NCBI GenBank assembly: GCA_020847735.1
Contig: JADLBL010000020.1
Coordinates: 195,632-259,631 of the forward strand
Source of the DNA: Candidatus Eisenbacteria bacterium
GTDB lineage: Bacteria; Eisenbacteria; RBG-16-71-46
Direction: 5' to 3'
DNA length: 64,000 bases
Shown here: positions 2,595 to 20,146 of the stretch, one piece after another
Layout of the letters: every line of letters starts with the position of its first letter
How positions within the stretch are numbered: position 1 is the first letter of the stretch
Made by a program: the position numbers and the translations under genes
Notes under the pieces: generated by a model
Databases searched by the model: none
What the model was told of the DNA's origin: nothing
What the model saw: the letters and a program-made list of their open reading frames with translations, nothing else

Positions 2595-3782
2595 ATGTCC
2601 TCTCTCTCCTGGCTCGACACGTCATCGCGAGAACACCGTCGCGCCCTTGAGGCGATTCGCCTGCTCGCTGAGCCGGGCACGGTCGACGAGCTCGGGCTGG
2701 GGACGGTACGCGACTCGCTCGCCGATCAGCTGTTCCCGGGCACGAGCACGATCCAGACGCGCGCGCGCTACTTCCTCTTCATCCCGTGGACCTATCAGAT
2801 CGTCGAGCGTTCGCGGCGCGCGGACAGCGCGGCCAAGCTGGCGCGCGAGATCGCAGTTCGTCTCATCGACGCGATCGGCGACGTGCCGGGGAACATCGGA
2901 CGCGAGGCGCGCTCGAGGCTGCGCCGGCTTCCCAGCGCCATCTACTGGCAGGGGCTCGGGCGCCTGCGCATCCGTAGATTCGCCGGATCAGTGGACCGGC
3001 TGCATCGCGTCCTGGACGGGCAGGCACAGATGGTTCAGGCGCTGCTCGACGACAGCCGCGAGCCCATTCTGGGAGGGTACGAGGGCCACTGGCATCCGGG
3101 GCTTCCGCCCGCGCCGAAGGCATTCCCGCGCGACGTCACGCTCGACCTGACGGGCCGGGAAGCTGACTACCTGCGGGAGCGAATCGTGACGGCTGCTCCG
3201 AGCTCTGCCTTCGCACACTGGGTGCAGGCGGAGGCTCCCGATGACCAGGTGGGGTTCCCGTGGGATGCGCCGCGGGCCCGGTCGTTGCCGGTCGCCGCCC
3301 GCGATCTCCTCGAGCACGCGCGGTGTTTCTCCGAGCTCATGCTTGGAGCAGCGCTACTCTACAACCTGCTGCTCGCACAGAAGCGCGGGGACTCTGAACT
3401 CGAGGCGGACTACACGGGTCGGCTGGGCGAGTGGTCCGGCCAGATCGCACGCCGGCGCGCAGCCCATGATCGCTGGGAGCTTCGCGAGTTCTGGCAGCAC
3501 GTCCGAAACGGCAATCCGCGATTCCGGGATCGCACACGGGTCTTCATTGAGCAGTGGCATACCTTGGCGATGGCCGGGCCTGGGAGCGTTGCGCGCAGCG
3601 AGCGAGCACGCAGGCTGATTGCCGACCGTGAACAGGCCCTCAAGGGCCATCTGGCGCGCCTTTCGAATCCACGTCAGCTCGAACTCTGGCGAGGTGCCTC
3701 GGGCACCGGTCAGATGGACTACCGCTGGGGTGATCCGGTGCAGACCATGGTCCGCGAGATCCTCGAGGCGCTTGCCCAATGA
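2595..3782 (+). CDS. DUF6361-like protein of a PLD/helicase cassette
   Basis: This 395-residue soluble protein has an N-terminus that matches, from memory, the family called DUF6361: a WLD start followed by VDELGLGTVRDSLADQLFPGTST and then IQTRARYFLFIPW. The rest is helical and rich in Arg, with no catalytic motif I can name. Family members are usually found next to a PLD-like protein and a helicase, and that is the arrangement here. The next gene begins 7 nt after this stop and the helicase overlaps that one by 4 nt, so the three are almost certainly co-transcribed. No ribosome site precedes ATG 2595. A DNA- or effector-binding role within a defence complex is an inference only. Confidence 0.72.
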   Translation: MSSLSWLDTSSREHRRALEAIRLLAEPGTVDELGLGTVRDSLADQLFPGTSTIQTRARYFLFIPWTYQIVERSRRADSAAKLAREIAVRLIDAIGDVPGNIGREARSRLRRLPSAIYWQGLGRLRIRRFAGSVDRLHRVLDGQAQMVQALLDDSREPILGGYEGHWHPGLPPAPKAFPRDVTLDLTGREADYLRERIVTAAPSSAFAHWVQAEAPDDQVGFPWDAPRARSLPVAARDLLEHARCFSELMLGAALLYNLLLAQKRGDSELEADYTGRLGEWSGQIARRRAAHDRWELREFWQHVRNGNPRFRDRTRVFIEQWHTLAMAGPGSVARSERARRLIADREQALKGHLARLSNPRQLELWRGASGTGQMDYRWGDPVQTMVREILEALAQ

Positions 3783-3789
3783 GCCGCAC

Positions 3790-5619
3790 GTGCTGAGCCC
3801 GGACGATCGCGCGCAGTTGCTCGACGCGCTCAGGCCTCCCGAGGGCTATTCCCTGACGCGCGCAATCGCCACGAGCTATTCGCTCGACCTGCTCTCGCTG
3901 CTCACCGCTCCGCTCGCGTTCACGTTCTTCGATGCAGAGGATTCGGAAGGAATCCCTTCGCGTGACCCCGTGGCGCTCCTGCATGCCATCCGGTCCCACG
4001 CCGAACATCTCCACGTGTTCTGCCAACAGGGACGGATCGCGGTGCCGGCGCGGCACCAGCCGCTCTTCCAGCAGCTGGAGGGTTCGATCGTCGAGGTGCG
4101 CGCTCCTGGCAGCAGCGGCGTATTCCATCCCAAGCTTTGGGTGCTCCGATTCGCCAGCCACGATGCGCCCGTGCGCTATCGCGTGCTGGTCTCGAGTCGG
4201 AATCTGACTTTCGACCGCTCCTGGGACGTGTTGCTGACGCTTGAGGGTGCTGCGCAGCCGGGGCGCCACATTGCCGGCAACACGCCGCTCGCGGAGTTTG
4301 TGGCTGCGCTACCGAGGCTCGCAGCCCGCCCGGTGTCCGTCGACCTGCGGCGTACGGTGGCGGGAGTGGTCCGGGAACTGCGGACGGTCAGCTTCGAGAA
4401 GCCCCCCGGTTGCGATCGGTTCATCTTCCACCCGATCGGGCACAAGCCTGAGGCTCGGTGGCCGTTTCCGGCAAACGCGGACCGCGCGCTCGTCATCTCG
4501 CCGTTCGTCAATACGGGCTGCTTGAAACGTCTCGGCCAGATGACGGACCGGTTTTCGCTGATCGGGCGGTCAGAAGAACTCTCCGCACTGCCCCCAAGCG
4601 TCCTCAAGGAGGCCGAGGGCGTCTGGTCGCTGCGCCCTGAGCTGGATCTGCTCGAGGACGAGGTCGACGACACCACCGACGGCGCGAGCGCCCCGCCCGC
4701 GGGCCTCCACGCCAAGGTCTTCAGTCTGGAGCGGGGTATGGAGGCCAGCCTCTATGTTGGTTCCGCCAACGCGACGACGGCCGCCTTCGATCGGAACGTC
4801 GAGTTCCTTGTTGAGTTGCGAGGGGCGAGGCGGGACTTCGGTCACGACGCCCTGCTGGGTGACCAGCGGACGGGACTTCGATCGCTTCTGCAAGAGTTCA
4901 AGGCCGACGAACGTGACGAAGTCGACGAAGATCAGCGTCGTGCGGAAGCAGCGCTCGAGGATATCCGTGACCAGATTGCGCAATTGGGCCTGGTCGCCCG
5001 CTGCGAGCCCGACGGCGACGCGTTCAGGGTGACGTTGGCTTGCGCGAGCCACGGCCTGCTTCGGCCCAAGGTGGAAGCAGAAGTCGCCTGTCGGCCCATC
5101 ACGCTGCCCGAAGAGACCGGCGCGCGTCCGTTCGAGTTGGAGAGGGCAGAGCCCGCCCAATTCCATCTGTCCGCGCCGGCGCTGACGTCGTTCTTTGCGT
5201 TCACGATCAGGGTCAAGGTTCGAAGGGCGTCGGCCGCGCAGTCGTTCGTCTTTAACCTACCGCTGCAGGGAGAGCCGCCGGACCGTGCGGCCGAACTGCT
5301 CCGTCGGCTCCTCAAGAACCGCGAGCAGGTCCTGGCGTTGTTGCTCATGATGCTGTCGGGGGAGAACCTGGTCGCCGACGGACTCAGCGAACGCCTGGGA
5401 CTCGGTGGCGCAGCGGCCGAGGCCCTTGGCTTCGGGGGGGACGTCACGCTCTTCGAAGCACTTGTGCGCGCCCTGGACCGCGAGCCCGAGCGTCTGAAAG
5501 GTCTGGAACGGACCATTCGGGAGCTGAAGACCGGGGCCGCGGGCGAAGACCTCTTGCCCGAGGGGTTCGACGAGGTCTGGGGCCCGATTTGGGCGGCGCA
5601 TCAGGAGCTTCACGGATGA
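3790..5619 (+). CDS. Phospholipase-D-like nuclease (two HxK motifs)
   Basis: I place the start at GTG 3790, just after the preceding stop, giving 609 residues; the frame stays open upstream but overlaps the previous gene. Two PLD half-sites are visible: FHPKLW (His near residue 113) followed by SSRNLTFDRSWD, and GLHAKVF (His near residue 307) followed by GSANATTAAFDRNVEF. A two-HxK single chain forms one active site in PLD-superfamily nucleases and could cut DNA through a phosphohistidine intermediate. The C-terminal 250 residues are helical and charged, with an Asp/Glu-rich stretch near residues 375-400 (DERDEVDEDQRRAEA). Its TGA overlaps the helicase ATG (ATGA at 5616-5619). It probably acts as the nuclease partner of that helicase; which nucleic acid is cut cannot be read from the sequence. 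Confidence 0.78.
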   Translation: MLSPDDRAQLLDALRPPEGYSLTRAIATSYSLDLLSLLTAPLAFTFFDAEDSEGIPSRDPVALLHAIRSHAEHLHVFCQQGRIAVPARHQPLFQQLEGSIVEVRAPGSSGVFHPKLWVLRFASHDAPVRYRVLVSSRNLTFDRSWDVLLTLEGAAQPGRHIAGNTPLAEFVAALPRLAARPVSVDLRRTVAGVVRELRTVSFEKPPGCDRFIFHPIGHKPEARWPFPANADRALVISPFVNTGCLKRLGQMTDRFSLIGRSEELSALPPSVLKEAEGVWSLRPELDLLEDEVDDTTDGASAPPAGLHAKVFSLERGMEASLYVGSANATTAAFDRNVEFLVELRGARRDFGHDALLGDQRTGLRSLLQEFKADERDEVDEDQRRAEAALEDIRDQIAQLGLVARCEPDGDAFRVTLACASHGLLRPKVEAEVACRPITLPEETGARPFELERAEPAQFHLSAPALTSFFAFTIRVKVRRASAAQSFVFNLPLQGEPPDRAAELLRRLLKNREQVLALLLMMLSGENLVADGLSERLGLGGAAAEALGFGGDVTLFEALVRALDREPERLKGLERTIRELKTGAAGEDLLPEGFDEVWGPIWAAHQELHG

Positions 5620-8600
5620 GCCGCCAGCGGATTCCCGACACGCGCCAGGTGCTTGCTCAGCTCAAGAGCTTCCAGCGAGACACCGTGGACTACGTGTTCC
5701 GCCGCTTCTACACCGACCCTGAGACCACAGACCGGTTCCTCGTGGCAGACGAGGTCGGGCTCGGCAAGACGCTTGTCGCCCGCGGCGTCATCGCGCGAGC
5801 TATCGAGCACCTACGGGACAAGGTCCGGCGAATCGACATCGTTTACATCTGCTCGAACGCCGACATCGCACGCCAGAATGTGGGCCGGCTCCAGCTCGGC
5901 CGCGGGGCGGAGTTCATCAGGGCCACGCGGCTCACGATGATGGCGGTTGAGCTGAACAAGCTGCGCCGCAACCGAATCAACTACGTGTCCTTCACGCCGG
6001 CCACGTCTTTCGATCATGCCACGAGCCTCGGCCTTTGGAGCGGGCGCGTGCTGCTCTTCCTCATGCTGCGCAAAGCATGGGGAATCCGGAGCCGCGGCTC
6101 TCGCCGCCTGCTCGCCGGCAACGTGGACCCGCGGCGCTTCGTCCATCAGCTTAATGAGGCGAATCGCGATCCAGAGTTCCAGATCGACGAGAAGCTCGCC
6201 GCGCAGTTCCGAAAGGCCCTCATACGGCACGACCGGGGCGAAGTCACAGCCGGGCGTCGGCGACTCAAGGAACGATTCGGGACCCTGGCAAGGGCGATGG
6301 GAGGGCGGCTGCGGCGTTGGACCGAGGAAGAGCGCAGGGAGCGCAACAACATCGTGGGTACGTTGCGTGCCGTCCTTGCCGCCACCGGTGTGCGCGCCCT
6401 GCAACCGGACGTCATCATCCTGGACGAGTTTCAGCGCTTCAAGCACTTGCTGGACCCGCAGGACGATGCGGGCCGACTTGCCCACGAGCTCTTCACGTAC
6501 GGCGGCAGTCAGACGCGCGCCAAGGTACTTCTGCTCTCGGCGACGCCGTACAAGATGTACACACTGGCGCGTGAGACGGCCGACGACGATCACTACCGCG
6601 ACTTCCTCGAGACCATCAAATTCCTCGTTAACGACCCGGCGAAGCATGTGGGGTTCGAGCAGCTGCTGGCGGACTTCCGCGCAGGCCTCCTGCGGCTGGG
6701 CCAGGGCCAGGGCGGGGAGCTGCCACGACTCAAGCGCGCGTTGGAAGCCTCGCTTCGCAGGGTCATAGCACGTACCGAACGGCTGGCAGTGTCGGCGGAT
6801 CGCGACGGGATGCTCGCCCAGCTCCCCTCGCCGGCGATGGAGCTGCGCTCGCGAGACCTGCACGGGTACCTCGCGATGCAGCGGGTCGCGCGCGAGCTCC
6901 AGCAACCCGACACGATCGAGTACTGGAAGTCGGCGCCGTACCTGCTGAACTTCATGGACGAGTACAAGCTGAAGAAGGCATTCCACGAGCGCATTCGACG
7001 ACCGGCGCCGGAGCTCGCCGGCGCGCTCGCGGGAGGCTCCGCCGGCCTGCTGCCACTGAGGGAGATCAAACGCTACTCCGAGCTCGACGGCGCAAACCCG
7101 AGGCTGCGCTGGCTGCTTCGCGATGCGATCGACTCTGGCGGTTGGAGGCTCGCCTGGGTGCCTCCGTCGCTTCCGTACACGCGACTCGAGGGACCCTTCG
7201 GCGACCAAGGTGTCCATCGATTCACGAAGAAGTTGATCTTCTCGGCATGGCGAGTCGCTCCGCGGGCCACGGCGTCATTGCTGTCGTACGAGGTCGAACG
7301 GCGCACGATGCAGGCGTTGGACCCGGAGATCCGCAATCGACCCGCCGACCGCAAGCGCATGCGGGGCCTGCTGCGTTTCGCGCGAAGCGAAGGACGTCTG
7401 ACGGGGATGCCTGTACTGGCGCTGATCTACCCGTCGAGCGCGCTGGCGGAACTGGCCGATCCTCTGGAGTTCGCTGCCTCGCGAGCGAACGGCGAGCTCG
7501 GCACCCTCGACGAAGCCCTCTCCTGGGCTGCGGAGCGCATTGCGCCGAGGTTGCGCAAGCTGGGTAGCCCGGCGCGCAGCAAGGGCGACGAGGATCCGAA
7601 GTGGTACTGGGCGGCGCCGATCCTGATGGATCTCGACGAACGCGAGCAAGCTCTCCGCGCGTGGTGGGGTAGGCAGGACCTCACGGTGACTTGGAGCGGT
7701 GAACTAGTCGAGGACGAGGACGGCGATCGCACCGCCTGGCAGGACCACTTGGACGAAGTTCGAGAACTAATCGAGAACCCTGCCGACTTGGGGGCGCAGC
7801 CACGCGACCTGGCCCAGGTGCTCGCGAAGGTGGCGTTTGGGGCGCCGGGCGTAGCCGCATTCAGGGCGCTGGAACGGACCGACCGACGCGCAGACACCGG
7901 CGACCACGCGCTCCGTGACGCTTCCGCGCGCGTCGGGTGGGCCTTCAGATCCCTGTTCAACCAGCCCGAAGTGATGGCCCTGGTCCGCAGCCTGAACGTG
8001 GAGGAGCCCTACTGGCTGCGCGCCCTTGAGTACTCCGCAAGCGGTTGCATCCAGGCGGTTCTGGATGAGTACGTGCATGTCCTGCGCGACGCCCTGAGCA
8101 CCGCGAGCGACGCGCGGAAGAGTGGCCTCAGCCGGCTGAAAGACGAGATGTGCTCCGCGCTCGAGCTGCGGACGTCGTTGGTGAAGCCTGACGGCATCGT
8201 TGTGAATGGGGATCGCGTCTACCTGACCCCCCAGAACCTCCGCTGCCACTACGCGCTTCGCTACGGGGATGAGCCGCAGCAGGACGAGCGGCGTCCGGTG
8301 CGCGCCAGCCAGGTCAGGGCGGCATTCAACTCCCCGTTCCGCCCGTTCGTGCTGGTCAGCACCTCGGTTGGGCAGGAGGGCCTCGACTTCCACCCGTATT
8401 GCCACGCCGTCGTGCACTGGAACCTGCCCGCGAACCCGGTCGACCTCGAGCAGCGCGAGGGCCGGGTGCATCGCTACAAGAGTCATGCCGTGCGCCGCAA
8501 CGTCGCACTGCGCCACGCCGGCGCGCTCTCCCGCACACCGAGCGGCGATGTTTGGAAGCGGATGTTCGATGAGGCGGAAGCCCAGCGGGCGATCGGGGTG

Positions 8601-8858
8601 GGGGACCTCGTTCCCTACTGGGTGTACCCGGTCGAGGGTGGCGCGAAGATCGAGCGGCACGTCCCTGCGATGCCCCTGAGCCGCGAGCACTCCCGGATTG
8701 ACGACCTGCTTCGTTCCTTGGCGGTTTACCGGATGGTGTTCGGGCAGCCTCGGCAGGAAGATCTTCTGGCGTACCTGCGGGCGCACGTTCCGGAGCACGA
8801 GCTCGAGCGCTGCGCGCTGGAGTTGCGCATCGATCTGTCGCCGCCGGGGCGCAAGTAG
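5616..8858 (+). CDS. SF2 helicase/translocase of the DUF6361-PLD cassette
   Basis: The start is ATG 5616, inside the previous gene's last codons, with AGGAG 9 nt upstream; the product is 1,080 residues. The motor parts in order are: Walker A ADEVGLGKT (residues 44-52), motif II DEFQ (270-273) in place of DEAD/DEAH, motif III SATP (about 308), and a C-terminal RecA-like lobe. That lobe has STSVGQEGLDFHPYCHAVVHWNLP and motif VI DLEQREGRVHR (about residues 915-953). A long insertion separates the lobes, and about 110 residues follow them. This is a SNF2/Rad54-like dsDNA translocase layout. With the overlapping PLD gene it recalls the helicase-plus-PLD pairs of DISARM (DrmC) and Dpd (DpdJ/K), but the other genes of those systems are absent. 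Confidence 0.82.
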   Translation: MSRQRIPDTRQVLAQLKSFQRDTVDYVFRRFYTDPETTDRFLVADEVGLGKTLVARGVIARAIEHLRDKVRRIDIVYICSNADIARQNVGRLQLGRGAEFIRATRLTMMAVELNKLRRNRINYVSFTPATSFDHATSLGLWSGRVLLFLMLRKAWGIRSRGSRRLLAGNVDPRRFVHQLNEANRDPEFQIDEKLAAQFRKALIRHDRGEVTAGRRRLKERFGTLARAMGGRLRRWTEEERRERNNIVGTLRAVLAATGVRALQPDVIILDEFQRFKHLLDPQDDAGRLAHELFTYGGSQTRAKVLLLSATPYKMYTLARETADDDHYRDFLETIKFLVNDPAKHVGFEQLLADFRAGLLRLGQGQGGELPRLKRALEASLRRVIARTERLAVSADRDGMLAQLPSPAMELRSRDLHGYLAMQRVARELQQPDTIEYWKSAPYLLNFMDEYKLKKAFHERIRRPAPELAGALAGGSAGLLPLREIKRYSELDGANPRLRWLLRDAIDSGGWRLAWVPPSLPYTRLEGPFGDQGVHRFTKKLIFSAWRVAPRATASLLSYEVERRTMQALDPEIRNRPADRKRMRGLLRFARSEGRLTGMPVLALIYPSSALAELADPLEFAASRANGELGTLDEALSWAAERIAPRLRKLGSPARSKGDEDPKWYWAAPILMDLDEREQALRAWWGRQDLTVTWSGELVEDEDGDRTAWQDHLDEVRELIENPADLGAQPRDLAQVLAKVAFGAPGVAAFRALERTDRRADTGDHALRDASARVGWAFRSLFNQPEVMALVRSLNVEEPYWLRALEYSASGCIQAVLDEYVHVLRDALSTASDARKSGLSRLKDEMCSALELRTSLVKPDGIVVNGDRVYLTPQNLRCHYALRYGDEPQQDERRPVRASQVRAAFNSPFRPFVLVSTSVGQEGLDFHPYCHAVVHWNLPANPVDLEQREGRVHRYKSHAVRRNVALRHAGALSRTPSGDVWKRMFDEAEAQRAIGVGDLVPYWVYPVEGGAKIERHVPAMPLSREHSRIDDLLRSLAVYRMVFGQPRQEDLLAYLRAHVPEHELERCALELRIDLSPPGRK

Positions 8859-9026: not shown

Positions 9027-11006
9027 ATGGTCACTCCACCTGATGCCCCGCGAATCGCTTCGCTCAGCCTCGAGCGCCTCAAGACCCTGCCATCGCGCCG
9101 CGATGTCTGGCAGCTCGGCTTCGCGCGCATGCCGTCGTGGGTCACCGAGGAGCGCGGCAAGCCGTTCCGTCCCCTGATCGCGCTCTGCCACAGCGCGGCG
9201 GCCGAGAAGCTGGGGAATGGCGACGTGTGTACGCCCGGCGACCCGTTGGGGCCGCCGGCAATCGCCGCCGTCGCGCAGCTCGCGGTGAACCGGAGCATTG
9301 GCTATCGACCACAGAGGATCGAGGTGCGCGACCCGCAGTTGGCCGACGCGGTGCGCGCCGACCTCGCCAGTTGCGGCATCGAGGTCGAAGTCGTTGAACG
9401 CCTCGAAGCCCTGGACGAGGTGATCGCCGACATGATGCGGCACGTCGGCGGCAAGGCGGCCTCGGCGCGGTTCTTTGAGCCCGGGGTCGACCTCGAGTGC
9501 CTGCGCGCGTTTGCCGACTCAGCGGTCGAGTTCCACCGCGCCGCGCCATGGAACTTCCTCACCGACGACGACCTGATCTTGGTCGAGAGCCCCGCGGCGC
9601 CGAAGGGACTCGGTTGCTTCAATGTGCTGGGCGCCGGCGGGATCGAGCGCGGGCTGGGGTTCTTTCCCTCAAAGGCCGCCTTTGAGCGGTTCAAGCAGTC
9701 CGAACCGTTCGATCCGAAGATCGCCGCGGCGGGCCTCTGGATCATGAGTTTCGACGAGATCGTGGACTGGCCGATCGCCGACTCGGAGCTCTGGGAGGAG
9801 CACGACCTGCCGATCGCTGGCGATCGCGGCTACCCCTCGCTCGTGTGCCACCTGCCCAACGGGAGCGCGAGGTCCGCCAGCGCCGTACACCTCGCGTTCG
9901 TCGAGGCACTGATGCGTGCGCTGGCCGCCACCACCGAGGACGAGCTCGACAGCGGTCGCTGGACCAAGGCCGTCGAAACGATCGAAGGGCCCCTTGCCGT
10001 CGAGTTGTCGCTGCCGGCGGTCCTCGAGGCAAAGGCCGGCGCGCGTCGGCGTGGACCCGATCCTGCCGGCGAACTTCCTGACCGCCGCGTCATGGAGCAA
10101 ACGCTTCGAGATCTCCAGCAGATGATGGCCAGCCGTGAGTTCAAGTCCGAAGAGGAGATGAACGCCTTCCTGGCGACACAGGTTGGCAAGCGGCCCAAGC
10201 ACACACCCGCGCGCACTCCGCAGGGCAGGGCGCAGGAGTTGGTCGACCGCGCGTTCGAGGAGCGCGGCCGAATGCGCATCAAGCTCGCGCGCGAGGCGCT
10301 GCGGTTGTGGCCGGATTGTGCCGAGGCGTGGGTGCTGCAGGCCGAGCAGATGCCGAATCTCGACCGGCGCCGCGAACTCTACAGGAACGCCGTCGCGGCC
10401 GCGGAACGGGCGCTCGGCCCCAAGCCGTTCGCCGAAGACGTGGGCCACTTCTGGGGCATCCTCGAAACCCGGCCGTACATGCGCGCGCGCAGCGGCCTCG
10501 CGGGAGCGCTCTGGGACGCGGGCGAGCGCGATGAGGCGATTGCGCACTGGCTCGACCTGCTCAGGCTGTGCCCGGGAGACAACCTGGGCGTGCGCGACCT
10601 GCTCGTTCCGCGACTGCTCGAGGCGCGTCGCGACGCCGAAGCCGAGGACATGCTGGCGAAGTACGACGACGACGCGTCCGCAATGCTCGGCTTCGCGCGC
10701 GCCCTGCTCGAGTTCCGGCGCAGCGGCGTCGGGTCCGCCGCGCAGGCAAAGCTCGACGCGGCGATTCGGCGAAACGCCTACGTGCCGAAGTACCTGACCG
10801 GCCGCGCCTCTATGGAAGGCCCGGTGCCAGACTTCTACCGGATTGGCTCGGACGACGAGGCGCGCATCGCTACGAGCGTGCTGCTGGCGGCATGGACGTC
10901 GACCGACGGCGCAATCGAGTGGCTCGGCCGCTCGATCCGGCCGCCGAAGAGCGAACGACGGGAGAGACGTCGAGAAGGAAAGGGGCGCAACAAGCCCGGG
11001 AAATGA
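9027..11006 (+). CDS. Large protein with ST7-like TPR C-terminus
   Basis: This 659-residue cytoplasmic protein has two parts. Residues 1 to about 330 form an alpha/beta region of unknown function (segments such as FRPLIALCHSAAAEKLG and HDLPIAGDRGYPSLVCHLPNG) that resembles small DUFs found in stand-alone bacterial proteins. Residues about 395-610 form a helical repeat region with the signature of the ST7/TPR type: LAREALRLWPDCAEAWVL, GHFWGILETRPYMRARSGLA, and LWDAGERDEAIAHWLDLLRLCPGDN. The last 25 residues are strongly basic. TPR arrays bind proteins, so an adaptor role for the nearby nucleases or ATPases is possible but unproven. The next gene starts 34 nt after this stop and may share its transcript. 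Confidence 0.7.
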   Translation: MVTPPDAPRIASLSLERLKTLPSRRDVWQLGFARMPSWVTEERGKPFRPLIALCHSAAAEKLGNGDVCTPGDPLGPPAIAAVAQLAVNRSIGYRPQRIEVRDPQLADAVRADLASCGIEVEVVERLEALDEVIADMMRHVGGKAASARFFEPGVDLECLRAFADSAVEFHRAAPWNFLTDDDLILVESPAAPKGLGCFNVLGAGGIERGLGFFPSKAAFERFKQSEPFDPKIAAAGLWIMSFDEIVDWPIADSELWEEHDLPIAGDRGYPSLVCHLPNGSARSASAVHLAFVEALMRALAATTEDELDSGRWTKAVETIEGPLAVELSLPAVLEAKAGARRRGPDPAGELPDRRVMEQTLRDLQQMMASREFKSEEEMNAFLATQVGKRPKHTPARTPQGRAQELVDRAFEERGRMRIKLAREALRLWPDCAEAWVLQAEQMPNLDRRRELYRNAVAAAERALGPKPFAEDVGHFWGILETRPYMRARSGLAGALWDAGERDEAIAHWLDLLRLCPGDNLGVRDLLVPRLLEARRDAEAEDMLAKYDDDASAMLGFARALLEFRRSGVGSAAQAKLDAAIRRNAYVPKYLTGRASMEGPVPDFYRIGSDDEARIATSVLLAAWTSTDGAIEWLGRSIRPPKSERRERRREGKGRNKPGK

Positions 11007-11040
11007 GTGCTGCCTTCGGGCGTGCGTCGCGGAGGTGATC

Positions 11041-11994
11041 GTGTTCCTGTCGGGCCGCCAACTTTGGAAGCAGATCTCACAGACAGCGAAGTCCGCTCGG
11101 GGAAGGCGTTTCGTCGCCACGCCCTACCTGACCTCGGGAGTCGCGAAGGCACTTCACTTTCGCCGCTGTGATGTCCTCTTCTGCGCGCTGACTCTCGCAA
11201 ACTGCCGCAGCGGGAGCATCGACCCCCGGGAAGTGAAACGATTGCAGCGTCGCGGGGTCACCGTCTACACGAGCGACGAACTGCACGCCAAGGTATTCCT
11301 TCTCGGACACAAAGCCATCGTCGGGTCGGCCAATCTCACCCGGCGCTCGCGCGACGTGCTCGACGAAGCCGCCGTGCTGCTCGAGGACCGTGGGTCCGTC
11401 GCGGCGGTCCGCGCGTGGTTCGAGGCCCGCCTGCATTCGCCACTACAGCCCGAGTGGCTGGCCAAGTGCATCGCGGCGTACAGGCCCCCACGGGGAACGC
11501 CTGGCCCAAAGCACGGGCGTGACCCTGCCGCAGCAAGAGAGCGAGGCCGCGGCGTGATGCTTGCCGCGCTAGTGCCACGGCGCGACGACACGAGGGATGC
11601 GAGCCTCATCGAAGAGGGGCGCGCCCGCGCCAAGCAACTGCTCAAGCATAAGCGCCGGTCGGACGTCGAGGACTTTCGCTGGAGTGGGAGCCGCGAGTTT
11701 CGGGTCGGTGACGTCGTGATCCAGATGTTCCGCGACGGGGAGGAAACGTGGGTGTCACCGCACGCACGGGTCCTCAACGTTAGGAGGCGAACCCTGAAGA
11801 ACGGCAAGCGTCGCTCGTACGTCTTCCTGGAGATGCCTCGCCGCTACCGGCGCATGCGCTTCGAGGCCTTTGCAAAGCGCTGCCGCGCGTTCGGTCTCGA
11901 GATCAATGCGTGGCGAACGCGGGACGTCACGGACTCGGGGTTGATGCACCCGTTGCTGCTGCTGACGTCACCCGATGCGATGAGACGGGGCTAG
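11041..11994 (+). CDS. PLD-like protein with one HxK motif
   Basis: I choose GTG 11041 because GGAGGTGATC, a long complement of the 16S tail, lies directly upstream; GTG 11035 is the alternative. The 317-residue protein has an N-terminal PLD_2-like half: FVATPYLTSGVAKAL, then DELHAKVFLLGHKAIVGSANLT with His near residue 82. Only one HxK is present, so an active site would need a dimer, as in Nuc-type or BfiI-type PLD enzymes. The C-terminal half, with REFRVGDVVIQMF and a basic RRRTLKNGKRRSYVFL stretch, is unassigned and could bind nucleic acid. It is the second PLD-like gene of the island and is clearly different from the one at 3790-5619. Confidence 0.7.
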   Translation: MFLSGRQLWKQISQTAKSARGRRFVATPYLTSGVAKALHFRRCDVLFCALTLANCRSGSIDPREVKRLQRRGVTVYTSDELHAKVFLLGHKAIVGSANLTRRSRDVLDEAAVLLEDRGSVAAVRAWFEARLHSPLQPEWLAKCIAAYRPPRGTPGPKHGRDPAAARERGRGVMLAALVPRRDDTRDASLIEEGRARAKQLLKHKRRSDVEDFRWSGSREFRVGDVVIQMFRDGEETWVSPHARVLNVRRRTLKNGKRRSYVFLEMPRRYRRMRFEAFAKRCRAFGLEINAWRTRDVTDSGLMHPLLLLTSPDAMRRG

Positions 11995-12514: not shown

Positions 12515-13324
12515 ATGGGAGCTGACTTCGTCATTCGTGGAACCGTCCGCGGAACGCCAAGGACGTACGGAGATCGCCGAACCGAGGATGCTTGGCGCAG
12601 GCAAGTTGTCGCTGGAAGGTGGAGCGGTCATGAGGACGCGACGCTCCCCATCCGACGATCGATCGAGCTCCAGTTCACGTTCAGGATCAACGCGGGATCC
12701 AAGGACTACGGCGGAGCGTCCTTCCCGAATGGCCGGGACCTCGACACCCTGGTTGTTCAGAGCTCGACATCGGCGGCGCTCCTCGTCGGTCGCAACTCCG
12801 TTCGGCCAAGCCTCCGATGGGTCGACGGGCCGCTACTCGTGCGCCGGGTGCTTGCGTCAAAGGTGCTTGTTGAGACGGACGCTGATGCAGGCGTGGAGAT
12901 CACTCTGCGTCCCGCGACGGAGCAACCCAGCATCCACCCCTACCAGTGTGCACTTGAGTTCCAGGTGCTCGAGGCAGAAGTCCGAAATGATGGCCTCGCG
13001 AAGGCGATCAAGCGGACCGTAGGGGCGGCAAACCGTGCAGGCGTGAGATTCCCCGCGACAGCGCGTATCGGGCTCTCGCTCCTGTTCAGCGACGCGGAGC
13101 GCCCGAGAAACATCCTGAGCGAGGCCCTCTTGGAGAAGACAATCGACGCACTGGGGGCTTCACCCGTTGGGGATCGGAGACTCTTCGACGAGACCCCGGG
13201 GAGCCGCACCATCCTGAGAGACAATACCGACGACAGCATCATCTTCAAACTTTACGCCGAGAAGAGCAGAGCTCTTGATACGGGAGTCTTCATTCAGGGT
13301 AGGATGTGGAGGATCGCTGACTAG
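12515..13324 (+). CDS. Unassigned protein with a possible RusA-like N-terminal half
   Basis: The 269-residue product has no ribosome site before ATG 12515. A TTGTGC-18 bp-CATAAG pair at 12471-12500 could give an 8-nt leader. The first 140 residues loosely follow the RusA Holliday-junction resolvase layout: VRGTPRTYGDRRTEDAWRRQV, a beta strand ELQFTFRI, GRDLDTLV in the place of the DLDN metal site, WVDGPLLVRRVLASK, and a closing strand GVEITLRP. Two Asp of the DLD motif and one in VDG could bind metal. The Asn of DLDN is Thr, and the Lys after it is missing. The C-terminal 120 residues match nothing I know. The RusA assignment is tentative. Confidence 0.55.
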   Translation: MGADFVIRGTVRGTPRTYGDRRTEDAWRRQVVAGRWSGHEDATLPIRRSIELQFTFRINAGSKDYGGASFPNGRDLDTLVVQSSTSAALLVGRNSVRPSLRWVDGPLLVRRVLASKVLVETDADAGVEITLRPATEQPSIHPYQCALEFQVLEAEVRNDGLAKAIKRTVGAANRAGVRFPATARIGLSLLFSDAERPRNILSEALLEKTIDALGASPVGDRRLFDETPGSRTILRDNTDDSIIFKLYAEKSRALDTGVFIQGRMWRIAD

Positions 13325-13423: not shown

Positions 13424-16400
13424 ATGGCCCGCATGGCCGGTGACGGCAATGGATCTGCACATCTCGACTTCGGCGAGTGGCTGAAGGAGAACGCGTCCAA
13501 GGCTGCCAAGGACGCGGACGAGTACCAGCTCCACCTTGCCGCACACGAATGGGATCTGGCCTCTGCCCTCGAGATCAACTCGGGCAAGGACTTCGAGTCA
13601 CTCGAGCACCTCAACGTCAAGCCGTACGACCATCAGCTCGAGAATGCCATCGTCTTCTTCCGCCAGCTTGCACCTCGAGGCCTGATTGCCGACGACGTTG
13701 GACTGGGCAAGACCATTACCGCGGGGCTGATCGCCACCGAGCTCCTGCACCGCGGCCATATCGAGTCGCTTCTGATCGTGTGCCCGAAGGGCCTTGCAGA
13801 GCAGTGGAAGGAAGAGCTCGAGAGCAAGTTCCGCATCCAGGCCAGGGCAGCCTTCGGGACCGAGTTCACGGATCTCAAGACCTATCCCTACTGGATCACA
13901 TCGTACGACACCGCCCGTAGCAAGATGGCGAAGATCCGGGCCCGCGGCTTCGACATGCTCGTGCTCGACGAGGCGCACCAGCTCAAGAACCTCTACCCAA
14001 GCAATCCGCCGCAGCGCGCCGTGAAGTTCCGTGAGCTCATGCACAACGAGGGCGCTCGCTTCGTGATCATGCTCACGGCGACGCCGATTCAGAACCGGCT
14101 CTGGGACATCTACAGCCAGCTCGACATTCTCAAGGCGCCATTGCCGAACCCACTGGGCGAGCCGGACCGCTTCCGGACCCGGTTCATTGCCGACCCTGAC
14201 GCTCGCAGGTTGGTGAAGGGGCGCGAGGCGGAATTCCGCCAGCGCGTCGCGGACGCCACTGTGCGTACTCGACGCCGCGACACGAAGCTGTTGTTCCCCA
14301 CCCGAGAGGTGAAGGATCACAGGCTCAAGCCAGCGCCCGAGGAGGCAGCCTACATCGAGAAGGCACTCGCTGCGATCATGAAGTTCCCAAAGCTGACTCA
14401 GATTGCGTATGCCCGCGGTCTGATGAGCAGCCCCTGGGCGGCTGCGGCTTCGTTTGAGAAGCGTGCGCAGGATCCGACGCCTCCTCCTGTGTCCCGGGAC
14501 GTTCTGATGTCCCTTGCTCGTGAGGGGCGCGCCATCCAGAAGTCCGCAAAGGTCCAAGCGGTCGTGAAGCTGGTCGAGGAGGCATCGAAGGCGGGCAACC
14601 CTCGCATCATCGTGTTCACGATGAGGCTGGAGACGTTGCGTCACCTCGCGACGGCGCTGTCTGAGGCAGGGTTCGCCGAGCAGATCGGTGTCATGCAGGG
14701 CGGCGCTGCGGAAGCGAATCAGCGCGCTATCCGCGAATTCATGGCCGACCCAGTGAAGCGCCCGATCCTGCTGGCCAGCGACGTGGGCGCAGTGGGCTTG
14801 AACCTGCAGGCTGGCAACATCGTCATCAACTACGACCTGCCCTGGAACCCGATGCTCATCGAACAGCGCATCGGCCGCGTCCAGCGCCTCGGCCAGAAGG
14901 CGAAGAACGTCATCGTCTACAACCTCGTCCTCAAGAACACGATCGAAGAACACGTCGTGCTCCGGCTCATGGAGAAGCTCGCGCTCTTCACCCAGGCGAT
15001 CGGCGAGATGGAGGAGCTGCTGGCCGGTCTCGGGTTTGACGACGAAGAAGACGGCAGCACCAAGACCTTCGAGGCCAAGCTCATGGAGCTGATCCGCAAG
15101 AGCTTGGAGGCCAAGGACACCGAGGCAGACTTTGCAGCAATGGAGCAAAGCCGTCGCGATGCCGAGCAGCGGCTGCAAGAGGTCAGGGAGCGGAATGAGT
15201 CGATGCTGGCGTCATTGCGCCCTAAGGATAGCCAGACCCGGCTTGAGGGGCTCGAGCGTTCTGAGCCGCGGCTTTCCCTACGTGACGTCGTGCTCGGCTG
15301 CCTCCGCCGGATACATGCGGCGATTACGGTCGCCGAGGACGGCTCGATTTCGTTCCGCGACCGAAACAATCGCACGGTGGAGATGCGCTTCGAGCGCACG
15401 GGCTTCGGGCCCGCAGCCCAGCAGTCACCCGAACATCGTGTTGTCCTGCCGGGCACAGCAGCCTTCGAGGCTCTAACGCGCGATATTCGTGAGGGAGCGC
15501 TTCATCACCTGTGCGACACCTCCGGCGTGGTGGGGGACAGGGCCAAGGAGGCCGTCAGGTCGCACCTCGCCCAGTGGGGGTTGCAAGTCGGGGAGATACG
15601 CGAGACTGCCTCCACCTCGTGCCTCGCATCGCGGGTTGCAGTCAAGGCGTCGATCGAGGTCAAGGGAGATCGTCACGAGAGTGTCATCGAGGTGGACGCC
15701 TCGCCGCCTGAGCACGGCGTAGTCACGATGGTGGGCAGTGAAGCGCTTGGAAACGGTGCCTCCGCTGAGTCCTTCAATCGCGCGAGCCCTGAGGTAATCC
15801 AGCGGCTTTCGCGGGAGATCGCACGCGCATCGAGCGGTGCCAACGAAGCCCTCGAACGCGACGCGAACTTCCAGAAGTTCCGGGCCTTCTATGGCGAGCG
15901 GCTGGTCAGTAGCGCCCGTGACCTGCTGGAAACGCTCGAGCCCAAGAACTCGGTCGCTGCCGGTGACGAACTCCGCCATCTTGAGAAGCTGGGCCGATCG
16001 GACCCCGCCATCAAGGGAGCGCTGGAGGTGCTTCGCGCTCGGTTTGCCCCTCGCGTACAGGCCACGCCCGTGGGTGTCCAAGGGCTCGTCTACTCGCTTT
16101 CCGATGTCGAGGTCGAGGCAAAGCACCCGGACCAACGAGTGGTCCATCCGCTGAAGTTCCGGATCGTGCCGATTTCGGGCGTGATCGTGGAGGGGGTCAA
16201 GGCACCCGAGGAACTGGTGGACGGCGAAGCGGTCTTCGCGTGTCCGAGCGGGCATCTCGCGCCCGCGAGCTCCTTTGAGGTCTGTCATGTGGACGGGTGC
16301 GAGGTCGAGATCTGCGGGGAGTGTGCTCCGACCCTGAAGGGCAAGCACCAGCTATTCGTCTGCCCATTATGCGAGAAGACCACCTGCCACGAGCACTCGC

Positions 16401-18766
16401 GCAAGTGCGACGGCTGCAGGCGATCCGTCTGCCTTGAGGACGCGATGGAGATCGCGGGTGGGCGTTTCACCTGCTCAGAGTGCATGGCCGTGCTCGAGGA
16501 TGGCTCGGTCGCGCTCGAGGAGGAGATCCAGGCCAGCGCGATTTCCGGCCGGCGCGCTAGGCGCGCAGACATGGTTCGCAGCCCGATCAGTGGGCGCTAC
16601 GTGATGGCGGACGAGACGGCGAAGTGTGAGGAGAGCGGCCGTGCCCTGCCGGTGGACGAGCTCGCGCTCGACGGGATCTCGGGACGCACCGTAGGCATGG
16701 ACCTGCTAGAGCCGAGCGCGGTTTCTGGCAAGCGCGGGCTCAGGACGAAGATGGTCCGGAGTGCGTTGTCCAACAAGCCCATGCTGCCGGGCGAGCAATC
16801 GTTGTGCGATGAGTCCGGTCGCGTGTTCCTTCCGGACGAGCTCGGCTATTGCGAAGCCACCGGCAAGCGAGTCGATCCCGCGCTGCTGGAGGATGATGTC
16901 GTTGAAGGCGATCGTGTTTTGCGCCGCCTGCTGGGCCGCAGCAGCGTCAGCGGCCGCCACACGCGCCCCCAGAACCTCATCAAGAGCGATCGCAGCGATG
17001 CCCGCGGGCTCGTGGACGAGATGCGGAACTGTTCGGAGTGCGGATCGAACGTCGCCGTGACCGAGACCGGCGTGTGTTCGGAGAGTGGGGCCGAGGTGTG
17101 CACCGAGCACCTCGCACGTTGCGAGGCGTCAGGCGCCCTAGTGTTGGAGAAGAACCTCGGAACATGTGAGGTGACGCGCAAGCGCGTGCGTAACTCGCTG
17201 CTCCGCGTCTGCCCCGAGACAGGCATGCAGGCGCTCGGCAGCCTGTTCGAGAAGTGCGAAGCCACGGGAGTCGAGGTTCTGCCAGAGGGTCTTCAGGTCT
17301 GCGCGGCAACGGGCAAGCGTGTTCGGGGTTCGCTCCTGACCGCTTGTGAGGCCACCGGGAAGGCCGCGCTCGCGAATGCGCTTGAGACCTGCGCTGTCAC
17401 CGGCAAGCGCGTGCTGCCGGCAGTTCTCCTGACGTGCCCGGAAACGAATCTGAAGCTGCTTCCCAACGCGGCTGCCAAGTGCGAGGAGACAGGCGTTCTC
17501 GTGCATCCGAGTGCCGTCGGAACATGCGCCTCGTCTGGCGCGACTGTGCGACAGTCGCTGCTCGCGCGTGATGACGTAGCAGGCGGGCAGGTTCTCGCAC
17601 GCCTCCTGCAGACGTGCAGCCGCACGGGGACGCGCACGCTGGCCGAGAACTTGGAAGTCTGCAGCATAAGCGGCGACCGTGTGCTCACTTCTCAGCTCGT
17701 TGCCTGCGAGAAGAGCGGCCGCCGGCTGCTGCCGGAGCTCCTGAAGACGTGTTCCGTCACGCAGGCGCGGGTCCATCCCAACCTAGTGATTGAATGCCCC
17801 GAGACAGGCGCTACGGTCTTGCGCGAGGCGTCGGAGACTTGTGAGGCCAGTGGTGCGCTGGTCGCGCCCTCGGCCCTAGACACGTGCAGCGCATCGGGCA
17901 AGCGAGTGCGCAGGAGCCTACTCGCGCAAGATGAGTTCACTGGCAAGAAGGTGTATGCACCCCTGCTCGAGCGCTGTCAGGAGTCTGGCCGGATGACGTT
18001 GCGGGATGCGATGGTGACATCCGCTGGCTCTGGGAAGCGCGTGGCCGAATCCCTGGCGACCAAGTGCGAGGCGACCGGGCGTCCGGCGCTGCCCGCCGAG
18101 CTGGAGGCCTGCGCGCGGTCCGGCAAGCACGTCCTGCCCGAACAGTTAGTCGCGTGTGAGGCGAGCGGATCGCGGGTTCTGCAGGAGTGCCTGCAAGCCT
18201 GCCAGCTGTCCGGCAAGCGAGTCCTGCCCGAGCACCTGGGCGAATGCTCGGTGACCAAGGTGCGCGTGCTGAAGTCCATGCTCACCACATCGGACGTTTC
18301 GGGCAGACTGGCTCAAGCGGGCCTCGGAAGGACCTGCGGCGCCACAGGTCGCCATGTCCTCATGGACGAGGTGTTCACGAGCGACATCAGCGGCAAGGAG
18401 TTCCTGCTTGAGCGACTCCGGCCGTGCATCACCTGCGGCAAGAAGATGGATGCCAGCGAGGCGCATGAGTGTGGTGTCTGCGGGCAGCTGCACTGTGAGG
18501 CCGCGATGAAGGAAGGCGTTTGTGTGGTGTGCACCGGCCTACTTCGTGGATCCCGGGGCCGCAAGCTCACGTCTGCCGAGGTGCGCGCGCTCCGTCAGGT
18601 CGTGGGATGGATCGGGGGCGGGATCACCGAGTCGCGGCCGCTGGCCCGGTTTGTCCTCGCGCGGACGGGAGCGCTGGCCTGGAAGAAGCGGCGCAGTGTG
18701 CTCGTCCTGACGCCGGAGGGGGACCTTTCCGCAGCCCAGTTGCTCTCGCAGAAGGACCTCACGTGA
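13424..18766 (+). CDS. Giant SNF2 ATPase with 42 tandem 15-residue Cys repeats
   Basis: The start is ATG 13424, with GAGG 6 nt upstream; the product is 1,780 residues. Residues about 60-560 are a complete SNF2 motor: ADDVGLGKT (89-97), DEAHQ (182-186), LTATPIQNR (about 218), SDVGAVGLNLQAG and motif VI IEQRIGRVQRLGQ (about 450-490). A coiled segment (RRDAEQRLQEVRERNE, near 590) and a region without recognised motifs follow. Residues about 940-1022 hold clustered CxxC/CxxCH pairs that look like zinc ribbons or treble clefs. Residues 1038-1667 are 42 consecutive 15-residue units, consensus C-x-x-(S/T)-G-(K/R)-x-V-L-x-x-x-L-x-x, with no insertion or deletion. A final CITCG...CGVC...CVVC knuckle and about 80 residues close the protein. 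The motor should translocate on dsDNA. The repeat rod is unfamiliar and may bind metal, DNA or an invader protein. Confidence 0.85.
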   Translation: MARMAGDGNGSAHLDFGEWLKENASKAAKDADEYQLHLAAHEWDLASALEINSGKDFESLEHLNVKPYDHQLENAIVFFRQLAPRGLIADDVGLGKTITAGLIATELLHRGHIESLLIVCPKGLAEQWKEELESKFRIQARAAFGTEFTDLKTYPYWITSYDTARSKMAKIRARGFDMLVLDEAHQLKNLYPSNPPQRAVKFRELMHNEGARFVIMLTATPIQNRLWDIYSQLDILKAPLPNPLGEPDRFRTRFIADPDARRLVKGREAEFRQRVADATVRTRRRDTKLLFPTREVKDHRLKPAPEEAAYIEKALAAIMKFPKLTQIAYARGLMSSPWAAAASFEKRAQDPTPPPVSRDVLMSLAREGRAIQKSAKVQAVVKLVEEASKAGNPRIIVFTMRLETLRHLATALSEAGFAEQIGVMQGGAAEANQRAIREFMADPVKRPILLASDVGAVGLNLQAGNIVINYDLPWNPMLIEQRIGRVQRLGQKAKNVIVYNLVLKNTIEEHVVLRLMEKLALFTQAIGEMEELLAGLGFDDEEDGSTKTFEAKLMELIRKSLEAKDTEADFAAMEQSRRDAEQRLQEVRERNESMLASLRPKDSQTRLEGLERSEPRLSLRDVVLGCLRRIHAAITVAEDGSISFRDRNNRTVEMRFERTGFGPAAQQSPEHRVVLPGTAAFEALTRDIREGALHHLCDTSGVVGDRAKEAVRSHLAQWGLQVGEIRETASTSCLASRVAVKASIEVKGDRHESVIEVDASPPEHGVVTMVGSEALGNGASAESFNRASPEVIQRLSREIARASSGANEALERDANFQKFRAFYGERLVSSARDLLETLEPKNSVAAGDELRHLEKLGRSDPAIKGALEVLRARFAPRVQATPVGVQGLVYSLSDVEVEAKHPDQRVVHPLKFRIVPISGVIVEGVKAPEELVDGEAVFACPSGHLAPASSFEVCHVDGCEVEICGECAPTLKGKHQLFVCPLCEKTTCHEHSRKCDGCRRSVCLEDAMEIAGGRFTCSECMAVLEDGSVALEEEIQASAISGRRARRADMVRSPISGRYVMADETAKCEESGRALPVDELALDGISGRTVGMDLLEPSAVSGKRGLRTKMVRSALSNKPMLPGEQSLCDESGRVFLPDELGYCEATGKRVDPALLEDDVVEGDRVLRRLLGRSSVSGRHTRPQNLIKSDRSDARGLVDEMRNCSECGSNVAVTETGVCSESGAEVCTEHLARCEASGALVLEKNLGTCEVTRKRVRNSLLRVCPETGMQALGSLFEKCEATGVEVLPEGLQVCAATGKRVRGSLLTACEATGKAALANALETCAVTGKRVLPAVLLTCPETNLKLLPNAAAKCEETGVLVHPSAVGTCASSGATVRQSLLARDDVAGGQVLARLLQTCSRTGTRTLAENLEVCSISGDRVLTSQLVACEKSGRRLLPELLKTCSVTQARVHPNLVIECPETGATVLREASETCEASGALVAPSALDTCSASGKRVRRSLLAQDEFTGKKVYAPLLERCQESGRMTLRDAMVTSAGSGKRVAESLATKCEATGRPALPAELEACARSGKHVLPEQLVACEASGSRVLQECLQACQLSGKRVLPEHLGECSVTKVRVLKSMLTTSDVSGRLAQAGLGRTCGATGRHVLMDEVFTSDISGKEFLLERLRPCITCGKKMDASEAHECGVCGQLHCEAAMKEGVCVVCTGLLRGSRGRKLTSAEVRALRQVVGWIGGGITESRPLARFVLARTGALAWKKRRSVLVLTPEGDLSAAQLLSQKDLT
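16535..18424 (+). repeat. 42 x 45-bp in-frame repeat coding the Cys-x2-(S/T)-G array
   Basis: Exactly 42 units of 45 bp (15 codons) run without a gap. About two thirds begin with Cys; the others begin with Ser or Asp (for example SAVSG, DVVEG, DDVAG, DEFTG, SDVSG, SDISG). The DNA copies are highly diverged while the protein pattern (S/T-G at positions 4-5, a hydrophobic residue at 8, L near 12-13) is kept, so this is an old array under protein-level selection, not a fresh minisatellite. Blocks also recur: units 23-25 resemble units 31-33, and units 8-9 resemble 23-24, which suggests growth by duplicating several units at once. Confidence 0.9.
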
Positions 18767-18996: not shown

Positions 18997-19028
18997 ATTC
19001 CCCGGTTCGAATCCGGGTGCCGCCTCCA
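18997..19028 (+). repeat. attR: duplicated tRNA-Cys 3' end
   Basis: An exact 32-base copy of 2349-2380. The sequence upstream of it does not continue as a tRNA (no D-arm or anticodon arm), so it is only the insertion footprint. The bases after it (GATTCGCTGC...) should be the original chromosome downstream of the tRNA. Confidence 0.9.
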
Positions 19029-19986: not shown

Positions 19987-20146
19987 GCGCCCCGCACGCC
20001 CGCGAAAAGGCGGTTGACGCGGCCCGGGTGCGAACTGATAAAGTAGGCGCACGTTCGCTCGCACGGCCTCATCCGTGCGCGGTCCCAACGGACTCGGGCG
20101 GTCCTCGGGGACCGAGAGGGTTGGGCACTCCGTGGAGTCATGCCCG
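19987..20146 (+). repeat. Promoter-leader cassette, copy 1
   Basis: About 90% identical over 160 bp to 27250-27409. It contains a promoter, TTGACG (20014-20019), 17 bp, GATAAA (20037-20042), followed by a leader with a perfect 7-bp hairpin (CGCACGG / CCGTGCG) and a second hairpin around CTCC-GT-GGAG near its end. Here it points at the Cys-rich secreted protein gene, giving a 5' UTR of about 115 nt. Confidence 0.8.
20014..20042 (+). promoter_or_regulatory. Promoter inside cassette copy 1
   Basis: TTGACG, a 17-bp spacer and GATAAA. The -35, spacer length and -10 are kept in both cassette copies, with one spacer change. Transcription should start near 20049. Confidence 0.7.

What the first reader, a model, noticed from the sequence alone, without database searches (positions are those of the whole stretch)
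13424..18766. SNF2 ATPase fused to 42 gap-free 15-residue Cys-x2-(S/T)-G repeats
After a complete SNF2 motor and a zinc-ribbon-like cluster, residues 1038-1667 consist of 42 consecutive units of exactly 15 residues. The consensus is C-x-x-(S/T)-G-(K/R)-x-V-L-x-x-x-L-x-x. No unit has an insertion or deletion, although sequence identity between units is low. I know of no described repeat of this kind. Strict spacing suggests a rod or solenoid with a ladder of Cys on one face, which could bind metal, track DNA or recognise an invader protein. SNF2 translocases of this size in a defence-type island are plausible sensors or disruptors.
Basis: partly seen in the sequence, partly recalled or inferred. 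Interest (0 to 1): 0.88.

Follow-up and report, generated by a model that had tools for sequence, protein, structure and literature searches.

The report
SNF2 motor with zinc-finger-derived repeat arm
A bacterial gene inside a mobile anti-virus gene island makes a DNA-motor protein carrying a long arm of 42 identical-length units, which looks like a chain of zinc fingers that has lost nearly all its zinc sites but kept its fold; this repeat is in none of the protein-family libraries searched.

Summary
In detail: residues 1038-1667 of a 1780-aa SNF2 protein are 42 gap-free 15-residue units (autocorrelation 0.28-0.31 at lags 15/30/45/60; shuffle maximum 0.13). No Pfam, NCBIfam, PADLOC or PHROG model covers them. 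Homologues with the same repeat occur sparsely in Myxococcota (30 units, 43% identity) and Pseudomonadota (about 13 units). Between the two closest orthologues the array differs only by whole units. Haloarchaeal plasmids carry an SNF2 gene beside a separate array gene whose 15-residue units are full zinc knuckles, CxxCGxxxCxxH. There, loss of Cys4 in unit n goes with loss of Cys9 in unit n+1 only (OR 31-35, p<1e-4), so zinc sites bridge neighbouring units. The window array is best read as this chain with nearly all metal sites lost; one interior site and zinc-rich modules at both ends remain. AlphaFold2 predicts a regular solenoid (pLDDT 89) whose best PDB matches, all weak, are LIM/PHD/RING-type zinc fingers. 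The gene sits in a 16.6-kb island between exact 32-bp tRNA-Cys repeats, beside a complete Azaca defence system and a PLD-family gene; relatives neighbour type III R-M or Mrr genes. Most likely a defence translocase with a length-variable binding arm. The ligand is unknown. A metal-binding Cys ladder is not supported.

The parts
13424..18766 (+). SNF2-repeat gene, 1780 aa
   Evidence: single ORF; full-length 43%-identical orthologue in a myxococcotal genome
13613..15199 (+). SNF2/RapA-DrmD-type ATPase motor (about residues 64-592)
   Evidence: Pfam, partial NCBIfam/PADLOC DrmD/DpdE/BrxH matches, motifs
15200..16240 (+). middle domain (about residues 593-939)
   Evidence: conserved in five bacterial homologues; weak collinear profile match to the N-terminal half of the haloarchaeal array protein, E 0.009, probability only 4%
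16241..16483 (+). N-terminal zinc-rich module (residues 940-1020: CGEC, CPLC...CHEH, CDGC...CLED, CSEC)
   Evidence: sequence; same strand/turn pattern as the array in the second AF2 model from about residue 976 on, pLDDT about 73-83
16535..18424 (+). 42-unit, 15-residue repeat array (residues 1038-1667)
   Evidence: AF2
16625..16804 (+). 4-unit block (residues 1068-1127) without counterpart in the myxococcotal orthologue
   Evidence: unit-level alignment
17030..17119 (+). only interior candidate zinc site: CSEC (unit 1203) with CTEH (C9, H12 of unit 1218)
   Evidence: all four ligands present here and at the aligned place in the myxococcotal orthologue
17120..17479 (+). 8-unit block (residues 1233-1352) without counterpart in the myxococcotal orthologue
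   Evidence: unit-level alignment; lag-8 self-similarity p=0.009, and 0.025 in the orthologue
18425..18532 (+). C-terminal zinc-rich cap (residues 1668-1703: CITC-x11-CGVC-x4-C...CVVC), RING-like ligand spacing
   Evidence: sequence; orthologue CDVC-x11-CSVC-x4-CARD...CRLC
18533..18763 (+). small C-terminal domain
   Evidence: sequence; low AF2 confidence
2306..2380 (+). tRNA-Cys(gca); its last 32 bases (2349-2380) are the left direct repeat
18997..19028 (+). exact 32-bp copy of the tRNA-Cys 3' end (right repeat)
2595..3782 (+). ZacA (DUF6361) of an Azaca system
   Evidence: PADLOC 6.7e-120, Pfam DUF6361
3712..5619 (+). ZacB of an Azaca system (start codon not settled)
   Evidence: PADLOC 1.2e-173
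5589..8858 (+). ZacC helicase of an Azaca system
   Evidence: PADLOC E=0, 1152 bits
9027..11006 (+). DUF6930/DUF7309/TPR-like protein
   Evidence: Pfam
10990..11994 (+). PLD-family (HKD) protein, DpdK/DrmC-like (start not settled)
   Evidence: Pfam PLDc_2 1.3e-9, PADLOC DpdK 4.8e-6
12515..13324 (+). protein without a family match (RusA-like only by eye)
   Evidence: no PADLOC or Pfam match

Best explanation
A mobile-island defence gene. Shown: an intact SNF2 ATPase is joined to an array of 42 strictly 15-residue units, and the gene lies in a tRNA-Cys island next to a complete Azaca system. Strongly supported: the unit derives from a tandem zinc knuckle (CxxCGxxxCxxH, kept in haloarchaea) in which zinc n is held by CxxC of unit n and CxxH of unit n+1, an open-ended version of the RING/PHD-type cross-brace. 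In the window nearly all sites are lost and hydrophobic residues fill the core (Cys9 to Leu, His12 often to Leu, Cys4 to Ser/Thr), while the end modules and one interior site stay zinc-capable. Each unit needs its neighbours to fold, which explains why the period never slips and why arrays grow by whole units. Inferred: the motor translocates on or remodels invading DNA while the arm, whose length varies between homologues (about 10-47 units), acts as a rigid binding surface that recognises or holds a ligand (invader protein or DNA); a partner nuclease (PLD next door here, type III Res or Mrr in relatives) does the damage.
For: Array and motor. Homologues: Rickettsiales MAG, a second genome of that class group, a pseudomonadotal genome, a myxococcotal genome. 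Whole-unit indels; 8-unit block similarity. Zinc-type arrays beside SNF2 and restriction-endonuclease genes on three haloarchaeal plasmids. Ligand covariation only at n to n+1: OR 34.8 p=7.9e-5, OR 31.5 p=9.4e-5 with the third array. Window-type and zinc-type units match best in the same register even with Cys, His and Gly removed. AF2 on nine units: pLDDT 89, five models 85.5-89.2, pattern knuckle-strand-turn-strand; zinc-bearing end units give nearly the same pattern. PDB fold search led by tandem LIM, then PHD/RING zinc fingers, all weak; viral-library hits include a phage 'LIM domain containing protein', TM 0.58. Defence and mobility.
Against: PDB fold matches are weak (best E 0.022, TM about 0.3). 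AF2 is known to over-predict confident beta-solenoids for perfect repeats (PMC11795689), though these units are only 28% identical. Haloarchaeal arrays could not be folded here. The covariation rests on 12 unit pairs lacking Cys4, six of which also lack the next Cys9. In Pseudomonadota the gene stands near recombinases but no recognised multi-gene defence system. The ligand and the nuclease partnership are inferred. No integrase and no empty site were found.
Confidence: 0.55

Rival explanations
1. The arm is a DNA-binding track: its Lys/Arg at unit positions 6-7 line one face and wrap or guide DNA entering the motor.
For: K/R at position 6 in 57% and position 7 in 45% of window units; 50-64% at position 6 in the four homologues.
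Against: Net charge is only +0.1 to +0.4 per unit and negative in one homologue; Glu/Asp at positions 2 and 11 offset it; haloarchaeal units have acidic residues at position 6, although halophile proteins are acidic in general.
Confidence: 0.25
2. The Cys ladder is a metal- or redox-sensing device, one Cys per unit.
For: Cys at position 1 in 29 of 42 units.
Against: Position 1 is Cys in 50-57% and Ser in 43-50% of units in the three Pseudomonadota homologues, which suggests a small buried residue; 37 of 43 adjacent-unit pairs keep at most one ligand.
Confidence: 0.08
3. The protein is a RapA-like transcription or housekeeping factor and sits in a defence island by chance.
For: The motor matches RapA, DrmD, DpdE and BrxH models alike.
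Against: Found in only one of 47 genomes of its class and very sparsely elsewhere; bounded by tRNA repeats with Azaca; relatives next to type III R-M, Mrr/restriction endonucleases or serine recombinases.
Confidence: 0.15
4. Window-type and haloarchaeal zinc-type repeats arose separately; the 15-residue period is convergence.
For: The window-type profile does not score the haloarchaeal arrays; the middle-domain profile match is weak.
Against: Same gene context (SNF2 motor), same period, same register best even without Cys/His/Gly; the window and its orthologue keep one complete interior zinc site of exactly the n/n+1 type and zinc units at both ends.
Confidence: 0.15

Closest known systems
DISARM DrmD / Dpd DpdE / BREX BrxH SNF2 helicases
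   Same: same SNF2/RapA-type motor, in defence loci
   Different: scores far below family cut-offs (DrmD 218 vs 610 bits, DpdE 190 vs 500); no 15-residue array matched by those models; DISARM partner genes not recognised here
RapA (RNA polymerase-associated SNF2 ATPase)
   Same: motor similarity (solved structures)
   Different: 132 vs cut-off 576 bits; array and island context differ
Cross-brace and tandem zinc fingers: RING, FYVE, PHD, tandem LIM (LMO2, PINCH, LHX)
   Same: CxxC knuckle plus CxxH/C pair, interlocked sites, weak fold matches
   Different: those are finite domains with one or two zincs; here an open-ended chain of exact 15-residue units, mostly without metal ligands
Haloarchaeal plasmid array proteins (H. 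tiamatea WP_020931433.1, H. salina WP_247995970.1, unannotated 1245-aa ORF of H. lucentense)
   Same: 15-residue unit, same register, next to SNF2 gene
   Different: separate gene, full zinc ligands, restriction-endonuclease neighbour
Azaca (ZacABC)
   Same: complete in the same island
   Different: a separate three-gene system; the SNF2-repeat gene is not one of the three PADLOC Zac models
Phage proteins with LIM-like predicted folds (BFVD; e.g. Klebsiella phage KpV48 kpv48_08)
   Same: predicted fold similarity; Cys-rich C-terminal region
   Different: no strict 15-residue array seen in the one read; no sequence similarity found

Membership tests
DISARM DrmD | score above the NCBIfam equivalog cut-off (610 bits) | tested here: not met
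   218 bits
DISARM DrmD | DISARM partner genes (DrmA/B, methyltransferase) at the locus | tested here: not met
   neighbours are ZacABC, TPR-like, PLD, unknown; PLD is only weakly DrmC-like
RapA | score above the NCBIfam cut-off (576 bits) | tested here: not met
   132 bits
Dpd DpdE | score above the NCBIfam cut-off (500 bits) | tested here: not met
   190 bits
SNF2 superfamily ATPases | intact helicase motifs and Pfam SNF2 domain above cut-off | tested here: met
Cross-brace zinc fingers (RING/PHD/LIM-like) | four metal ligands per site | tested here: not met
   one interior window site has four ligands and one end site three; 37 of 43 adjacent-unit pairs have at most one
Cross-brace zinc fingers (RING/PHD/LIM-like) | interlocked sites (second ligand pair from beyond the next knuckle) | tested here: inconclusive
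   covariation supports n to n+1 in haloarchaeal arrays; no experimental structure
Known repeat families in Pfam | any Pfam model over residues 1038-1667 | tested here: not met
   no match with E up to 10
Azaca | matches ZacA, ZacB or ZacC | tested here: not met
   for the SNF2-repeat protein none of the 25 PADLOC families shown is a Zac model (the other 22 matches were not shown); the neighbours do match
tRNA-inserted genomic island | tRNA gene with a direct repeat of its 3' end at the far edge | tested here: met
   exact 32 bp, 2349-2380 and 18997-19028
tRNA-inserted genomic island | integrase in the element; empty site in relatives | tested here: inconclusive
   no integrase among the ORFs examined; relatives lack synteny at this place
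Anti-phage defence protein | protection against phage or plasmid | not testable with these tools
   needs experiment

The most novel reading that the evidence does not exclude
A new class of repeat protein: an open-ended cross-brace in which each 15-residue unit shares zinc sites with its neighbours, and which in one lineage dropped almost all metal, kept the fold, and became the length-variable recognition arm of an undescribed SNF2 anti-invader system spread on mobile islands in bacteria and haloarchaea.
Probability: 0.4. Interest if true: 0.8.

Novelty: new variant of a known kind. Interest (0 to 1): 0.64.

Why it matters
It joins a defence-type DNA motor to a repeat that no searched family library describes, and gives that repeat a readable origin: interlocked zinc knuckles that lost their metal. 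If right, it shows how a metal-stapled solenoid can become metal-free by steps, offers a strict 15-residue building block for designed rods, and defines a candidate defence protein whose arm length varies between homologues, which can be tested directly for phage or plasmid exclusion.

Tried and rejected
Viral contigs: four scans gave nothing. Scans with the window repeat, the Halorhabdus array and a homologue found no relative; a degenerate CxxTGKRVLP pattern gave only chance hits. tblastn of the arrays against phages: no match. A1 alignment discarded because MAFFT broke the register. PDB sequence searches hit only the motor; nothing significant for the repeat. Empty-site search in relatives: no synteny. 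One zinc site per single unit: rejected because C4 and C9 of the same unit do not covary (OR 0.7). The second AF2 model (851 aa) is of low overall confidence (pLDDT 67) and was used only for the local pattern at the zinc-bearing ends.

Full report
Window 13424-18766 (+) is one ORF of 1780 aa. Residues 1038-1667 are 42 units of exactly 15 residues. The autocorrelation of residue identity is 0.28-0.31 at lags 15, 30, 45 and 60 and at most 0.085 elsewhere; the maximum in 2000 shuffles was 0.129. DNA repeats over the same region are weak, so the period is kept at the protein level among old, divergent copies. Pfam finds only the SNF2 motor. The best NCBIfam and PADLOC matches (DrmD, DpdE, BrxH, RapA) are partial and, in NCBIfam, far below cut-off. 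No library searched has a model over the array.

Relatives. A Rickettsiales MAG has a 1252-aa homologue with about 13 units of the same kind. Profiles built from the array found three more: a genome in the same class group (1265 aa), a pseudomonadotal genome (1266 aa) and a myxococcotal genome (1627 aa, 30 units). The myxococcotal protein is a full-length orthologue, 43% identical over 1557 columns. Aligned unit by unit it lacks one block of four and one of eight units and needs no smaller gap. Both proteins show 8-unit self-similarity (p=0.009 and 0.025), which suggests growth by block duplication. The family is rare: 1 of 47 genomes of the window's class, 2 of 385, 1 of 379, 0 of 291 and 2 of 399 in the other groups sampled. 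Group names are read from the titles of the loci used as centres.

Haloarchaeal arrays. On plasmids of Haloferax lucentense, Halorhabdus tiamatea and Halocatena salina an SNF2 gene is followed by a separate gene carrying an array, and a restriction endonuclease gene follows. The units are again 15 residues, with rare exceptions of 16-17: C1-x2-C4-G5-x3-C9-x2-[HD]12-x3, with Cys1 in 80, Cys4 in 68, Cys9 in 73 and His/Asp12 in 73 of 81 units. These are zinc-knuckle ligands.

Which ligands go together. If zinc sat within one unit, Cys4 and Cys9 of that unit should be lost together. They are not (OR 0.7). Loss of Cys4 in unit n goes with loss of Cys9 in unit n+1 and at no other lag tested (OR 34.8, p=7.9e-5; OR 31.5, p=9.4e-5 with the third array). 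The sample is small: 12 pairs lacking Cys4, six with both losses. The inference is that zinc n is held by CxxC of unit n and CxxH of unit n+1, with the next knuckle in between. This is the interlocking of RING and PHD fingers carried on without an end. The C-terminal cap of the window protein, CITC-x11-CGVC-x4-C...CVVC, has RING-like spacing. From general knowledge of these families, FYVE and PHD domains contain a similar element (CxxC-x4-C/HxxC).

The window array as a derived form. By its consensus, Cys4 became Ser/Thr, Cys9 mostly Leu and His12 often Leu. Counting candidate ligands for each n/n+1 pair, the window array has one site with all four (CSEC in unit 1203 with C9 and H12 of unit 1218), one with three at the C-terminal cap, and 37 of 43 pairs with none or one. 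The orthologue keeps exactly two complete sites, at the aligned interior place and at the C-terminal cap. Haloferax keeps 33 of 41. Unit profiles of the two kinds match best in the same register out of 15, even with Cys, His and Gly left out, although the next-best register is then not far behind for the window pair (z 2.4-3.8). The middle domain gives a collinear but weak profile match to the N-terminal half of the haloarchaeal protein (E 0.009, probability 4%). A single shared origin is therefore likely, not proven. Position 1 is Cys or Ser in roughly equal numbers in the Pseudomonadota homologues, which fits a small buried residue better than a metal ladder.

Structure prediction. AF2 on nine window units with a 10-row alignment gave mean pLDDT 89 (five models 85.5-89.2) and a regular pattern per unit: six-residue knuckle loop, strand 7-9, short turn 10-12, strand 13-15. 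A longer model (851 aa) has low overall confidence but shows nearly the same pattern in the zinc-bearing units at both ends. The PDB fold search is led by tandem LIM domains (LMO2, PINCH), with PHD, CHY and RING-type zinc fingers below; all matches are weak (best E 0.022). The viral library gave 15 hits at E<=0.001, one of them named a LIM domain protein of a phage (TM 0.58). AF2 is known to over-predict confident beta-solenoids for perfect repeats (PMC11795689). Three points argue against that here: the units are only 28% identical, the predicted unit contains a knuckle and a turn, and the matches are zinc fingers rather than beta-solenoids. A second method is still needed.

Genomic setting. 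A tRNA-Cys gene lies at 2306-2380. Its last 32 bases recur exactly at 18997-19028, 230 bases after the SNF2-repeat gene. The stretch between has GC about 0.62-0.68, against about 0.69-0.75 in the window beyond 28 kb. It holds ZacA, ZacB and ZacC of an Azaca system, a DUF6930/TPR-like protein, a PLD-family protein, an unassigned protein and the SNF2-repeat gene. No integrase was recognised, and relatives lack synteny at this place, so the empty site could not be shown. In the myxococcotal genome the gene begins 40 bases after a type III restriction enzyme, itself preceded by its methyltransferase and a DrmD-like helicase fragment. Two Pseudomonadota homologues lie near serine recombinases; the third neighbours an SbcB-type exonuclease matching a DRT-associated model. 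Defence and mobility are thus the common theme. Recent work describes HKD-nuclease plus Swi2/Snf2 helicase pairs as defence effectors (PMC12839542), which makes the PLD neighbour a plausible partner.

Mechanism proposed. Motor: ATP-driven movement on duplex DNA, from family knowledge. Arm: a rod of neighbour-dependent units, closed at both ends by zinc modules and pinned once inside; no unit can change length without disturbing both neighbours, which would explain the unbroken period. Ligand: unknown. A protein-binding arm is somewhat favoured over a DNA track because net charge is near zero. Outcome: a partner nuclease acts on the bound DNA. Only the anatomy, the context and the covariation are shown; ligand and outcome are inference.

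Limits. Genomes searched are unnamed and group names come from centre loci. The genome-contig collection could be scanned only once and with few peptide patterns, so the number of relatives is a lower bound. The ligand covariation rests on few events. No experiment bears on function.

Noticed in passing
window 2306-2380 and 18997-19028: tRNA-Cys(gca) with an exact 32-bp copy of its 3' end 16.6 kb away, bounding an integrase-less island with Azaca and the SNF2-repeat gene.
   Followed up: yes
window 2595-8858: Complete Azaca (ZacABC) system in a little-known bacterial phylum-level group.
   Followed up: partly
window 12515-13324: 269-aa protein with no Pfam or PADLOC match; sequence looks RusA-like by eye only.
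   Followed up: no
window 19987-20145 and 27250-27408: 159-nt direct repeat (89% identity), overlapping the N-terminal part of two reading frames.
   Followed up: no
window 21097-22344 (-): ISL3-family transposase (Pfam 1e-64) just outside the island.
   Followed up: partly
L072 3323-5302 (Klebsiella phage KpV48 kpv48_08): A phage protein among the viral fold-search hits, with a Cys-rich C-terminal region (CCCCGE...; CTWSDYHTAYVYDN...CEIEG) recalling the cap of the alphaproteobacterial arrays.
   Followed up: partly
L062, L034, L070 array ends: Conserved C-terminal cap C-x-W-[ST]...HP-x-D...C-x-L-T...IH in three homologues; may be another degenerate metal site.
   Followed up: no
L043 1861-4470 and L042 1948-4797: A PbeA-like DEAD/DEAH helicase (H. 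tiamatea) stands divergently upstream of the haloarchaeal SNF2-array pair, and a DEAD/DEAH helicase gene stands in the same place in H. lucentense.
   Followed up: no
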